Shown: positions 24,835-63,658 of the stretch, piece by piece | How the letters are laid out: the number at the start of each line of letters is the position of its first letter | Position numbering within the stretch: position 1 is the stretch's first letter | From: Nevskiales bacterium | GTDB lineage: Bacteria > Pseudomonadota > Gammaproteobacteria > Nevskiales > Nevskiaceae | Direction of reading: 5' to 3' | NCBI GenBank assembly: GCA_028698335.1 | Contig: JAQVDP010000002.1 | Coordinates: 239,772-303,771, forward strand | Length of the DNA: 64,000 nt | Notes under the pieces: model-generated | Databases searched by the model: none | The model's input: the letters and a program-made list of their open reading frames with translations, nothing else | Told to the model about the DNA's origin: nothing | Position numbers and translations under genes: made by a program

Positions 24835-26349
24835 ATGTGCGGAATCGCCGGAATCGTTTCACAGAGCGCGCCCGTCAACTCGGAGCTGTTCGACGCGTTG
24901 ACCATGCTGCAGCACCGGGGGCAGGACGCGGCGGGCATCATCACCAACGAAGGGCACCGCCTGTACCTGCGCAAGGAGAACGGGCTGGTCCGTGACGTGT
25001 TCAGCTCCGACGAGCACATGGTCAAGCTGCGGGGACGGATGGGGGTGGCCCATGTGCGGTATCCGACGGCCGGGTGCTCGACCTCCGCAGAGGCGCAGCC
25101 GTTCTACACCAACACCCCGTTCGGCATTTCGCTGTCGCACAACGGCAACCTGACCAACGCCGAGGAACTCAAGCAGGAGCTGTTCCTGCAGGATCGCCGT
25201 CATCTCAACACCGATTCGGATTCCGAGGTGCTGCTCAATGTCTTCGCCCACGAGCTGTTGCAGCGCGGCGTCCTGCGGTTGACGCCGGACGACGTCTTCG
25301 CCGCGGTTTCGGGTGTGCACCAGCGCTGCCGCGGTGCCTATGCCTGCGTTGCGATGATCACCGGCTACGGCGTGGTCGGGTTCCGTGATCCCAACGGCAT
25401 CCGCCCGGCGGTCTACGGTGTGCGCGAGACGATGCACGGGCTCGACTACATGATCGCCTCGGAGTCGGTCGCGCTCGACGCGCTGGGCTATGAGCTGCTC
25501 GGCGACATCGGCCCGGGGGAGGCGGTCCTCATCACCATCGACGGCAAGCTGCACAAGCGCCAGTGTGCGTCGAATCCGATGCTCACGCCGTGCATCTTCG
25601 AGCACGTCTATCTGGCGCGGCCCGATTCGGTGATCGACGACATCTATGTCTACAAGGCGCGTCTGCGCATGGGCGTGAAGCTGGCCGAAAAGATCCTGCG
25701 CGACTGGCCGGATCACGACATCGACGTGGTCATCCCGATTCCGGACACGTCCCGCGTCGCCGGCGCGGAACTCGCTTCGCGCCTGGGCGTGCACTACCGC
25801 GAGGGGTTCATCAAGAACCGCTACATCGGCCGGACCTTCATCATGCCGGGACAGGCCAAGCGCAAGAAGTCGGTGCGCCAGAAGCTCAACCCCGTCGGCG
25901 TCGAGTTCCGCGGCAAGAACGTGCTGCTGGTCGACGACTCGATCGTGCGCGGCACGACGTCGAAGGAAATCATCGAGATGGCCCGAGAAGCCGGCGCGCG
26001 CAAGGTCTACTTCGCGTCGGCGGCGCCGCCGGTGCGCTATCCCAACGTCTATGGCATCGACATGCCGACGAGTTCGGAGCTGGTCGCGCACGGCCGCACC
26101 ATCGAGGAGCTCGAGACGCTGCTCGGTGCCGACCGGCTGATCTATCAGGACCTCGAGGACCTGATCGAGGCGGTGCGTGCCGGCAATCCCGAGATCAGCC
26201 GCTTCGACTGCTCGGTCTTCACCGGCGAGTACATCACCCGCGACGTCACCGCCGAGTACCTGAGCCAGCTCGAGCTGTTCCGCTCAGATTCGGCAAAGGC
26301 GGCCCGCAGCCGGTCGCAGACCGTGATCGAACTGCCGAATCACGCGTAG
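24835..26349 (+). CDS. purF: amidophosphoribosyltransferase
   Basis: First committed step of purine synthesis: PRPP plus glutamine to phosphoribosylamine. The mature N-terminal Cys (M-C-G-I-A-G) is the glutaminase nucleophile. The PRPP loop [13 protein letters not shown] is intact. At 504 aa it matches the iron-sulfur-free E. coli type (505). No propeptide precedes the Cys. It ends the cvpA-purF pair; a 9-bp GC-rich hairpin follows immediately. Confidence 0.98.
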
Positions 26350-26355
26350 CGGCAT

Positions 26356-26380
26356 GCCGGCCGCGACTTGAGCGGCCGGC
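26356..26380 (+). other. GC-rich hairpin after purF
   Basis: Perfect 9-bp stem, GCCGGCCGC (26356-26364) with GCGGCCGGC (26372-26380) and a 7-base loop, 7 bp after the purF stop. There is no T-run, so it is not a standard terminator. It overlaps the -35 of the candidate metZ promoter. Confidence 0.55.
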
Positions 26381-26396
26381 CGAATGGTCGTATGGT
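26368..26396 (+). promoter_or_regulatory. candidate promoter of the metZ leader
   Basis: TTGAGC (26368-26373) and TATGGT (26391-26396) with exactly 17 bp between them; each matches four of six sigma-70 consensus bases. Transcription would start near 26402-26404, at the 5' edge of the SAM-II aptamer, which is what a riboswitch promoter should do. Confidence 0.5.
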
Positions 26397-26400
26397 TGCG

Positions 26401-26452
26401 GTGCGCCGATTTGTTGCCAGCTTGCGGGCGCGTAATAAATGCAGCTAAACGG
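26401..26452 (+). ncRNA. SAM-II riboswitch aptamer upstream of metZ
   Basis: The segment carries the SAM-II (SAM_alpha) hallmarks. P1 is UGCGCC (26402-26407) with GGCGCG (26427-26432), plus one flanking G-U pair. The loop begins GAUUU, then UUGC. The 3' side reads AUAAAUGCAGCUAAA (26435-26449), the signature block of this class. The pseudoknot P2 pairs GUUGC (26413-26417) with GCAGC (26441-26445). SAM-II aptamers bind S-adenosylmethionine and are known mostly from alphaproteobacteria, before met genes including metZ; the gene here is metZ. Its last bases (26444-26452) also form the 5' strand of an antiterminator. Match was made by eye against remembered consensus. Confidence 0.9.
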
Positions 26453-26471
26453 ACAGCAAAGCCCGTTTAGC
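26444..26471 (+). promoter_or_regulatory. antiterminator helix of the SAM-II switch
   Basis: GCTAAACGG (26444-26452) is the exact reverse complement of CCGTTTAGC (26463-26471), with 10 bases between. The 5' strand is the conserved 3' end of the aptamer; the 3' strand covers more than half of the terminator's 5' arm. Aptamer with terminator, or antiterminator alone, are therefore mutually exclusive folds. Confidence 0.8.
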
Positions 26472-26490
26472 CTCGTGCAAACGGGCTTTT
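26458..26490 (+). terminator. SAM-controlled intrinsic terminator before metZ
   Basis: Perfect 11-bp stem, AAAGCCCGTTT (26458-26468) with AAACGGGCTTT (26479-26489), a 10-base loop and a short T-run. It ends 20 bp before the metZ start, so it must be bypassed for metZ to be expressed from an upstream promoter. It is the OFF structure of the riboswitch. Confidence 0.88.
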
Positions 26491-26510
26491 GACGTTTCTG
26501 GAGCAAGGCA

Positions 26511-27695
26511 GTGTACGAAGACTTCGATCCGGAGTGGGGCGCGTCCACGCTGGGGATACGGGCGTCCGAACCGCGGACGGAGAACCGTGAGCATTCCGCG
26601 AGTGTGTCGCTCACATCGAGCTACGTATTCCGCAACGCTGCGGAAGCGGCGGCGGTTTTCCAGGGTGAGCAGCCCGGATACATCTATTCGCGCTTCACCA
26701 ATCCGACCGTCGAGGCGTTCGAGCGCCGTCTTGCGGCGATGGAAGGCGGGCAGGCCTGCGTGGCCACCGCCAGCGGCATGGCCGCGATCCTGACGCTGTG
26801 TCTCGCGACGCTGAACATGGGCGATCACATCGTGGCGTCGCGCGGCCTGTTCGGCTCCACGATCGGCCTGTTCAACAACATCCTCGCGCGCTTCGGCCTG
26901 AGTGTGAGCTACGTCGATCTCACCGATCCGGCGGCATGGGAGGCGGCGATCCAGGACAACACCCGTCTGCTGTTCGTCGAGACCCCGTCCAATCCGCTGT
27001 GCGAGCTTGCGGACATCGCGGCGCTGGCCGAGGTCGCGCACCGCCACGGCGCGTGGCTCTGTGTCGACAACTGCTTCCTGACGCCGGCGCTGCAGCGGCC
27101 GCTGGCGCTGGGCGCCGATTTCGTCATTCACTCCGCGACCAAATACCTCGACGGGCAGGGGCGCTGTGTCGGCGGTGCGATCGTCGGCGACGCCGAGCGC
27201 GTCGGCAAGGACGTATTCGGGTTCATGCGGACGGCGGGTCCGTGCATGAGTCCGTTCAACGCCTGGGTGTTCCTGAAAGGCCTTGAAACCCTGGCGGTGC
27301 GGATGAAGGCGCACTGCCAGAATGCGCGCGCGCTGGCCGAATGGCTCGAGGAGCAGCCGCAGGTGGCACGGGTCCACTACCCGGGTCTGCATTCGCATCC
27401 GCAGCATGTGCTGGCGCAGCGTCAGCAGGCCGATTTCGGCGCCATCGTCAGTTTCGAGGTCGACGGTGGACGCGAGGCAGCGTGGAAGGTGATCGACAGC
27501 ACGCGGATGATTTCGATCACCGCCAATCTCGGTGACACGCGCACCACGATCACGCATCCGGCCACGACCACGCACGGGCGGATCTCCGCCGAGGCGCGCG
27601 CCGCCGCGGGCATTTCCGAAGGGTTGCTGCGTGTCGCCGTCGGTCTCGAGGATCTCGACGACATCAGGGCGGACCTCGCCAGGGGACTGGTCTGA
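26511..27695 (+). CDS. metZ: O-succinylhomoserine sulfhydrylase
   Basis: PLP enzyme that converts O-succinylhomoserine and sulfide directly to homocysteine in methionine synthesis. The 394-residue protein has the Cys/Met-metabolism fold with the PLP lysine in S-A-T-K-Y-L-D-G-Q-G-R (K211). The G-Q-G-R rather than G-H-S-D context after the lysine is the MetZ signature. It starts at a GTG (26511) with GGAG 7 bases upstream. It follows purF, as in Pseudomonas, but here a SAM-II riboswitch precedes it. It ends 4 bp before the next gene, which is probably in the same transcript. Confidence 0.95.
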   Translation: MYEDFDPEWGASTLGIRASEPRTENREHSASVSLTSSYVFRNAAEAAAVFQGEQPGYIYSRFTNPTVEAFERRLAAMEGGQACVATASGMAAILTLCLATLNMGDHIVASRGLFGSTIGLFNNILARFGLSVSYVDLTDPAAWEAAIQDNTRLLFVETPSNPLCELADIAALAEVAHRHGAWLCVDNCFLTPALQRPLALGADFVIHSATKYLDGQGRCVGGAIVGDAERVGKDVFGFMRTAGPCMSPFNAWVFLKGLETLAVRMKAHCQNARALAEWLEEQPQVARVHYPGLHSHPQHVLAQRQQADFGAIVSFEVDGGREAAWKVIDSTRMISITANLGDTRTTITHPATTTHGRISAEARAAAGISEGLLRVAVGLEDLDDIRADLARGLV

Positions 27696-63427: not shown

Positions 63428-63503
63428 GCGGGAATAGCTCAGTTGGTAGAGCGCAACCTTGCCAAGGTTGAGGTCGCGAGTTCGAGCCTCGTTTCCCGCT
63501 CCA
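63428..63503 (+). tRNA. tRNA-Gly (anticodon GCC)
   Basis: A 76-base cloverleaf. Acceptor GCGGGAA pairs with TTCCCGC; the D-loop has AGTTGGTAGAGC; the anticodon loop TTGCCAA carries GCC (63461-63463); the T-arm contains GTTCGAGCC. CCA is encoded at 63501-63503. Confidence 0.98.
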
Positions 63504-63584: not shown

Positions 63585-63658
63585 GGCTAGGTGGCAGAGT
63601 GGTTATGCAGCGGACTGCAAATCCGCGTACGCCGGTTCAATTCCGACCCTAGCCTCCA
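63585..63658 (+). tRNA. tRNA-Cys (anticodon GCA)
   Basis: A 74-base cloverleaf. Acceptor GGCTAGG pairs with CCTAGCC, with the U discriminator expected of tRNA-Cys. The anticodon stem-loop reads CGGACTGCAAATCCG, anticodon GCA. CCA is encoded at 63656-63658. A terminator separates it from tRNA-Gly, so read-through or a promoter near 63543-63584 is needed; none is clear. Confidence 0.97.

What the first reader, a model, noticed from the sequence alone, without database searches (positions are those of the whole stretch)
26368..26511. Complete SAM-II riboswitch with a built-in antiterminator/terminator switch before metZ
Seen: the SAM-II signature block AUAAAUGCAGCUAAA, P1 and pseudoknot pairing. 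GCTAAACGG (26444-26452) is perfectly complementary to CCGTTTAGC (26463-26471), and an 11-bp intrinsic terminator (26458-26490) shares that second strand. A -10/-35 pair puts the start of RNA at the edge of the aptamer. Known: SAM-II aptamers sense S-adenosylmethionine and are best known from alphaproteobacteria. Inferred: with SAM bound, the conserved GCUAAA is held in the pseudoknot, the terminator forms and metZ is off; without SAM the antiterminator wins. The same few bases act as ligand pocket and as antiterminator strand, which is a very compact design, and the apparent host is a gammaproteobacterium.
Basis: partly seen in the sequence, partly recalled or inferred. Interest (0 to 1): 0.85.

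Follow-up and report, generated by a model that had tools for sequence, protein, structure and literature searches.

The report
SAM-sensing RNA switch before metZ
The RNA leader of a methionine-synthesis gene (metZ) in a gammaproteobacterium resembles the SAM-II riboswitch family, and the same bases that would likely hold S-adenosylmethionine are exactly complementary to the front of a terminator-like hairpin, so it is predicted to stop the gene when S-adenosylmethionine is plentiful.

Summary
Confirmed. Window 26403-26490 is a SAM-II-type leader between purF and metZ in a Solimonas/Sinimarinibacterium relative. RF00521 scores 0.8 bit under the Rfam cut-off (35.2 vs 36; E 1.5e-6); 10 of 58 same-family genomes exceed it. 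The 9-bp pocket-strand antiterminator and 11-bp terminator are there. Of 60 related leaders with a terminator, 54 pair at least 4 of the 6 GCUAAA pocket bases with the terminator's front, against 4 of 26 alphaproteobacterial ones, which mostly use the P2a strand; the match follows sequence changes (26 of 29 families). Predicted: transcriptional OFF switch. SAM binding and termination are untested and the U-run is short. SAM-II in gammaproteobacteria, and terminators behind SAM-II, were already in print. Not found in print: the pocket-strand platform; that Rfam RF02424 ('sRNA Bp2_287') is this riboswitch on the wrong strand; that Solimonas and Burkholderia-like relatives carry a hairpin where SAM-V has P3 and escape Rfam's SAM models. 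The four Burkholderia-like metZ leaders do not show the antiterminator.

The parts
26368..26373 (+). -35 box TTGAGC (predicted)
   Evidence: sequence; position conserved in relatives
26391..26396 (+). -10 box TATGGT, spacer 17; predicted RNA start near 26403
   Evidence: sequence; spacing to P1 conserved
26403..26407 (+). P1 5' strand GCGCC
   Evidence: pairs with 26427-26431
26408..26413 (+). GAUUUG, L1 third strand (name by analogy to SAM-II/SAM-V structures)
   Evidence: aligned to RF00521
26422..26425 (+). UUGC, 5' strand of pseudoknot helix P2b (predicted to pair with 26444-26448 around a bulged U)
   Evidence: present in 38 of 38 aptamers of A1
26427..26431 (+). P1 3' strand GGCGC
26432..26443 (+). 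L3 linker GUAAUAAAUGCA; some relatives of the same genus have a hairpin inserted at its 5' end
26444..26452 (+). GCUAAACGG: predicted SAM pocket strand and antiterminator 5' strand
26463..26471 (+). CCGUUUAGC: antiterminator 3' strand; its first six bases are in the terminator's 5' arm
26458..26490 (+). intrinsic terminator-like hairpin (arms 26458-26468, 26479-26489) with U-run 26487-26490
   Evidence: -16.7 kcal/mol, 0 of 200 shuffles as good
26500..26503 (+). GGAG, predicted Shine-Dalgarno, outside both hairpins
   Evidence: sequence
26511..27695 (+). metZ, O-succinylhomoserine sulfhydrylase
   Evidence: NF006003 681 bits (cut-off 522), TIGR01325 567 (510)
24835..26349 (+). purF, upstream neighbour
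   Evidence: TIGR01134 506 bits (cut-off 350)

Best explanation
The metZ leader (26403-26510) carries a stretch that matches the SAM-II family just under Rfam's cut-off and whose strand GCUAAACGG is perfectly complementary to CCGUUUAGC at the front of a terminator-like hairpin, and it is predicted to act as a transcriptional OFF switch for metZ. Shown: the aptamer core, both hairpins, promoter spacing, purF-metZ context, and conservation of the pocket/terminator complementarity with compensatory change in relatives. Inferred: when SAM is scarce, RNA polymerase makes 26463-26471 before the terminator's 3' arm, the free pocket strand captures it, and metZ is read. When SAM is bound, GCUAA is held in P2b with UUGC (26422-26425), the terminator forms at 26458-26490, and an RNA of about 88 nt is released. 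By alignment to the SAM-V structure (inference), U26446, A26447 and A26449 would touch SAM.
For: RF00521 35.2 bits, E 1.5e-6. Ten of 58 family genomes are over the cut-off, among them same-genus G039 and G045. Aptamer model R1 gives the window 68 bits, but its sequence is one of the seeds. In 51 of 60 leaders with a terminator the pocket/terminator duplex is matched by at most 2 of 50 shuffles; the own pocket pairs better than other-type pockets in 54 of 60; with one locus per family, 29 families, median 26 better, p about 1.3e-5. Pair types at pocket positions 7-9: CGG/CCG, GCG/CGC or UGC, and in one leader (L142) GAG/CUC. Folding growing RNA in steps of 2: the 9-bp antiterminator is in the minimum-energy fold from 26472 to 26484, the terminator from 26486. 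metZ follows in 70 of 81 leaders (13 of them fetched through metZ), purF precedes in 53. The predicted Shine-Dalgarno lies outside both hairpins.
Against: RF00521 is below its cut-off. Full-length equilibrium favours the terminator (-33.0) over the antiterminator (-28.7 kcal/mol), so a switch must be kinetic. Energy folding prefers a hairpin that competes with P1 at many lengths; pseudoknots are not modelled. U-run only 4; simple terminator and promoter scans list neither element. P2a covariation absent: own -0.79 vs permuted -0.88, 365 of 500 permutations as good. P1 and P2b hardly vary in A1 (26 of 500 shuffles as good), and GCTAAA was required when leaders were picked, so its constancy is by construction. 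Nine of 60 leaders fail the duplex test and 6 pair worse than with other-type pockets; most GAG and AGG pockets carry a mismatch; 15 of 75 leaders showed no terminator by my finder. Four Burkholderia-like metZ leaders fail the antiterminator test. 15 of the 75 leaders came through RF02424, which may favour leaders with a terminator.
Confidence: 0.82

Rival explanations
1. The aptamer binds SAM, but the hairpin at 26458-26490 is a fixed attenuator or a weak terminator; control comes mainly from RNA stability or a released leader RNA.
For: Short U-run; terminator favoured at equilibrium; in S. meliloti the metZ SAM-II leader gives a ~100-nt sRNA and SAM conditions also alter mRNA stability (PMC9373788, passages).
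Against: Pocket/terminator complementarity is kept with compensatory change in 26 of 29 families, which a fixed terminator would not need.
Confidence: 0.08
2. Translational control: the SAM-bound fold hides the metZ ribosome-binding site.
For: Known for a few SAM-II and for SAM-V (PMC10907184, PMC6061858, passages); three of four Burkholderia-like metX leaders look built for it.
Against: Here the predicted Shine-Dalgarno 26500-26503 lies outside the aptamer, antiterminator and terminator.
Confidence: 0.05
3. A SAM-II-like aptamer whose ligand has changed (for example SAH or another compound).
For: No binding data; score just under the family cut-off.
Against: 21 of 22 RF00521 loci of the order keep the GAUUUG and GCUAAA core letters, and the gene is methionine synthesis.
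Confidence: 0.04

Closest known systems
SAM-II riboswitch (Rfam RF00521 SAM_alpha), e.g. S. meliloti metZ
   Same: P1, GAUUUG, UUGC/GC-U-AA core, promoter just before P1, metZ as target, terminator predicted behind it (PMC1273637 section 11; PMC9373788 passages)
   Different: In the sampled alphaproteobacterial leaders 4 of 26 pair 4 or more pocket bases and the P2a strand (GGCC) does most of the pairing; here and in 54 of 60 relatives the pocket strand itself is the antiterminator
SAM-V riboswitch (RF01826)
   Same: Same pseudoknot core and ligand mode as SAM-II according to PMC6061858 (passages); relatives of the window with a hairpin after P1 share its P3 position
   Different: Window has no P3; no RF01826 match up to E 10 in 26300-26620
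Rfam RF02424 Bp2_287, 'Burkholderia sRNA'
   Same: Covers the same purF-metZ leader; window 26372-26491 matches at 29.7 bits
   Different: Model is on the opposite strand; window below its cut-off of 70
metXZ element of betaproteobacteria (Leyn 2014, PMC4239095, section 10 read)
   Same: Precedes metX or metZ, pseudoknot, terminator/antiterminator proposed; four Burkholderia-like metX leaders match my SAM-II model
   Different: Described as a new element, not as SAM-II; its figures were not available, so identity is inferred

Membership tests
SAM-II (RF00521) | Covariance-model score at the curated cut-off | tested here: inconclusive
   35.2 of 36 bits, E 1.5e-6: below the cut-off by 0.8 bit; 10 of 58 family genomes are above it
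SAM-II (RF00521) | P1 stem enclosing the L1/P2b loop | tested here: met
   26403-26407/26427-26431, 5 pairs; 100% paired in 38 aptamers, one with a change on both sides; GCY before GATTTG was part of the selection
SAM-II (RF00521) | Conserved ligand core GAUUUG ... UUGC ... GCUAAA | tested here: met
   once in the window, 0 of 100 shuffles
SAM-II (RF00521) | Inner pseudoknot helix P2b | tested here: inconclusive
   UUGC/GC-U-AA present in all 38, but never varies and GCTAAA was selected for, so no covariation evidence
SAM-II (RF00521) | Outer pseudoknot helix P2a | tested here: inconclusive
   Window can pair CC/GG plus a few more; no covariation in 68 gamma leaders
SAM-II (RF00521) | Methionine/SAM gene downstream | tested here: met
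   metZ
SAM-II (RF00521) | Binds SAM, discriminates SAH | not testable with these tools
   needs in-line probing or calorimetry
SAM-V (RF01826) | P3 hairpin between P1 and the A-minor linker | tested here: not met
   absent in the window; present in same-genus G040, G041, G044
RF02424 Bp2_287 | Score at the curated cut-off, on its own strand | tested here: not met
   29.7 of 70 bits, minus strand

The most novel reading that the evidence does not exclude
SAM-II and SAM-V are ends of one continuum, and beta/gammaproteobacteria hold the middle: SAM-II-core aptamers with a SAM-V-like P3 hairpin, gained or lost within one genus at the purF-metZ site. Gammaproteobacteria use the SAM pocket strand itself as antiterminator, and Burkholderia-like metX leaders use it against a start-codon hairpin. 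Rfam misses the P3-bearing forms or files them on the wrong strand as sRNA Bp2_287, and Leyn's 'metXZ' element is the same riboswitch.
Probability: 0.65. Interest if true: 0.65.

Novelty: new variant of a known kind. Interest (0 to 1): 0.5.

Why it matters
It turns scattered gammaproteobacterial SAM-II matches into a conserved switch with its own expression platform, in which ligand and terminator would compete for the very bases that hold the ligand. It also suggests that an Rfam sRNA family, and probably a published orphan element of betaproteobacteria, are SAM riboswitches, which would change annotation of methionine control in Burkholderia-like genomes. P3-bearing and P3-free aptamers at the same site in one genus make the relation of SAM-II to SAM-V testable.

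Tried and rejected
A first measure of contiguous antiterminator length separated real from swapped partners only modestly (>=9 bp: 47% vs 33%; shuffles 1.7%), because GCUAAA is constant; replaced by duplex energy and by comparison with different-type pockets. A P2a covariation test was negative (4 leaders not parsed by it were left out). The antiterminator test failed for all four Burkholderia-like metZ leaders on the 45 nt before the terminator's 3' arm (L211 35, L212 8, L213 31, L214 182 of 200 shuffles as good); it held for L201 (0) and was borderline for L203 (9) of family f138. For metX, with the strand started 3 nt earlier and the whole leader as partner, L255 gave 1, L257 3, L252 7 and L256 80 of 200. 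I had first called the platform a beta/gamma trait; the check narrowed it to gamma, and the odds of the novel case went from 0.7 to 0.65. Regex recognition missed L045, which model R1 found. RF00521 hit L021 shows no SAM-II core and was dropped. Pattern hits without a P1 3' strand, e.g. G041:C8 and G216:C33, look like chance; the reversed pattern also hit once in the family and once in family f138. RF02424 hits L120, L215, L216 and L217 have no SAM-II on the other strand. A guess that family f138 was Burkholderiaceae was not borne out (only 4 genomes, none over the RF02424 cut-off). Considered and set aside: horizontal transfer as the main cause, since the order purF-SAM-II-metZ recurs in 53 of 81 leaders, including four Burkholderia-like ones; no tree was made.

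Full report
WHAT IS THERE. Between purF (ends 26349) and metZ (GTG 26511) lie a promoter-like pair (TTGAGC 26368-26373, 17 nt, TATGGT 26391-26396), a short P1 stem (26403-26407/26427-26431), the core GAUUUG...UUGC...GCUAAA, and a terminator-like hairpin 26458-26490. The strand GCUAAACGG 26444-26452 pairs perfectly with 26463-26471, six bases of which are in the terminator's 5' arm. For neither hairpin does any of 200 shuffles fold as well. The genes are purF and O-succinylhomoserine sulfhydrylase, both over NCBIfam cut-offs. The host is close to Sinimarinibacterium and Solimonas (metZ 88% and 82% identical to L023 and L024).

IS IT SAM-II? RF00521 gives 35.2 bits over the full model, E 1.5e-6; the cut-off is 36, so a cut-off scan of the window lists only two tRNAs. 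It is the only match reported in its genome. In the family 16 of 58 genomes match, 10 above the cut-off; in the order 22 of 85 (one of them, L021, lacks the core); in a class sample 89 of 274, 24 above the cut-off; in a phylum sample 78 of 378, 65 above. None of 14 control genomes match. An exact core pattern finds 19 of 58 family genomes (reversed control: one match) and 82 of 369 class genomes (reversed control: none in the rows), though a few pattern hits are plainly chance. Of 80 metZ loci from named genomes, 22 carry the core upstream by regex, and model R1 adds L045 (which searched 5 of the 58 loci without it). Halomonas loci showed none.

EXPRESSION PLATFORM. I collected 76 distinct leaders by a regex that demands GC(C/T)GA(G/T)TTG and GCTAAA, dropped the second aptamer of a tandem (L130), and found a terminator in 60 of 75. 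Of the 75, 47 came through RF00521, 15 through RF02424 and 13 through metZ. In 51 of 60 the duplex between pocket strand and spacer plus terminator front is matched by at most 2 of 50 shuffles. The leader's own pocket pairs better than pockets of other sequence type in 54 of 60 (p 1.4e-9) and worse in 6 (L003, L018, L020, L040, L104, L149). Leaders are related, so I repeated it with one locus per family: 29 families, median 26 better, p about 1.3e-5; 26 of 29 families have a locus pairing 4 or more of the six pocket bases (f6, f107 and f112 do not). Compensatory types at pocket positions 7-9 are CGG/CCG, GCG/CGC or UGC, and once (L142) GAG/CUC; most other GAG and AGG pockets keep a mismatch. 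The same count for alphaproteobacterial leaders is 4 of 26 (30 loci: L227 without the exact core, 3 without a terminator); there the P2a strand (GGCC) does most of the pairing. The alpha set is the 30 loci handed back as best, so it is biased to the family consensus. The contrast fits the report that 60% of SAM-II have a 5-bp, mostly G-C P2a (PMC6061858, passages); in the gamma leaders I found no P2a covariation.

HOW IT WOULD WORK. Folding the growing RNA from 26401 in steps of 2, the complete antiterminator is in the minimum-energy structure from 26472 to 26484 and the terminator replaces it from 26486; in the 26401-26478 RNA its pairs have probability 0.97-1.0. At full length the terminator wins (-33.0 vs -28.7 kcal/mol), so the decision must be kinetic: whoever holds GCUAA when 26463-26471 emerges. 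SAM would hold it in P2b. The predicted Shine-Dalgarno is outside both hairpins. This mechanism is inferred; no ligand or transcription data exist here. The weak points are the four-base U-run, shortest of the set with 6 others, a predicted hairpin competing with P1, and simple scans that list neither promoter nor terminator.

WIDER FINDING 1: RF02424. Rfam's Burkholderia sRNA Bp2_287 matches the window on the minus strand. Of its 18 places in 143 class genomes, all below its cut-off, 13 overlap an RF00521 match on the opposite strand, 4 more an aptamer found by pattern or regex, and 1 (L120) nothing. Of its 8 places in 378 phylum genomes, three over the cut-off (L211-L213) and a fourth (L214) show, on the opposite strand, GCGUC-GAUUUG..CAGCUUGCG-GACGC-hairpin-AAACAGCUAAA between purF and metZ; one is the window; three (L215-L217) show no SAM-II. 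A covariance model built from 38 gamma aptamers without inserts (E-values rough) finds L211-L214 at E 4e-10 to 1.8e-7 (L213 over model positions 4-32 only), much as it finds the 8 alphaproteobacterial loci searched (E 1.3e-10 to 8.8e-7). The paper that named it already placed it before methionine genes and proposed cis action (PMC3521395, section 17). A review lists Bp2_287 as RIT77, 135 nt, in B. cenocepacia (PMC10987360, passage); the terminated leader predicted from L211 is 137 nt. I could not check RIT77's strand relative to metZ. These four metZ leaders do not show the pocket-strand antiterminator.

WIDER FINDING 2: P3. In three genomes of the window's genus label (G040, G041, G044), in named Solimonas contigs, in family f138 and in the Burkholderia-like family f193 a hairpin follows P1's 3' strand at once or within 2 nt, then an A-rich stretch, then GCUAAA (or GCUAAU in L203). 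The 15 stretches I folded on their own, several from close relatives, all form it. This is where SAM-V has P3 (PMC6061858 section 12), which that paper says SAM-II lacks. RF00521 and RF01826 are not reported for the nine such loci (E up to 0.05) or the four metX loci (E up to 0.1); at E up to 10, of four loci rescanned, L026 gets a partial RF00521 match at E 7.2. The metX leaders of the four f193 genomes examined (L252, L255, L256, L257) match R1 (E 4.5e-5 to 9.6e-8) and carry such a hairpin. In L255 and L257 GCGGCUAAA can pair fully, in L252 over 7 bases, with a stretch next to a GCCGCC/GGCGG hairpin at the start codon (1, 3 and 7 of 200 shuffles as good); L256 does not (80 of 200). This suggests translational control by the same strand. 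It is probably Leyn's metXZ element (PMC4239095, section 10), but I could not see its figures.

WHAT IS KNOWN. SAM-II aptamers, a promoter just before P1 and terminators behind many of them, a few outside alphaproteobacteria: PMC1273637 (section 11 and passages). SAM-II in gammaproteobacteria, and terminators most often in alpha and beta: PMC2258182 (passages); alpha, beta and gamma: PMC2704228 (passage). Most SAM-II transcriptional: PMC6061858 (passages). Predicted SAM-dependent termination before metZ in S. meliloti: PMC9373788 (passages; its Figure S1, which shows that leader's two folds, was not seen). Tandem SAM-II and SAM-II/SAM-V: PMC9481103 (passages). I found no paper that makes the pocket strand the antiterminator, that identifies RF02424 or metXZ as SAM-II, or that describes P3-bearing SAM-II, in searches; the library lacks most subscription papers and figures, so absence there is weak evidence.

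VERDICT. The window's element is a well-supported SAM-II-type leader with a pocket-strand antiterminator. In itself it is a modest extension of a known class; the conserved gamma platform, the mis-stranded Rfam family and the P3-bearing intermediates raise its interest.

Noticed in passing
window 26372-26491, minus strand: RF02424 (Bp2_287 sRNA) matches the antisense of the SAM-II leader; 17 of its 18 places in the class sample lie opposite a SAM-II aptamer.
   Followed up: yes
L164, L165, L168, L026 (Solimonas-type); L211-L214 (Burkholderia-like metZ); L110, L203, L205 (family f138): SAM-II-like aptamers with a hairpin directly after P1's 3' strand, at the SAM-V P3 position; those scanned with Rfam give no RF01826 match and no significant RF00521 match (L110 and L205 not scanned that way).
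   Followed up: yes
L252, L255, L256, L257 upstream of metX: P3-bearing SAM-II-like leaders before metX; in L252, L255 and L257 the pocket strand can pair next to a start-codon hairpin, suggesting translational control.
   Followed up: partly
L104, L105, L130: A second, weakly scoring SAM-II-like aptamer follows the first one's terminator; tandems are known in kind.
   Followed up: no
window 26356-26380: 9-bp GC inverted repeat after purF without a U-run, read from the sequence; the metZ -35 box lies in its loop and right arm, so purF termination and metZ initiation may interfere.
   Followed up: no
window 26443-26472, minus strand: The antiterminator hairpin read on the other strand looks like a terminator, perhaps why sRNA predictors chose that strand.
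   Followed up: no
L250 (own genome, metX): The genome's best metX match (469 bits, under the 500 cut-off) has no SAM-II match in its 4-kb locus, only metZ appears to be under this switch.
   Followed up: partly
window 63428-63500 and 63585-63655: Two tRNA genes.
   Followed up: no
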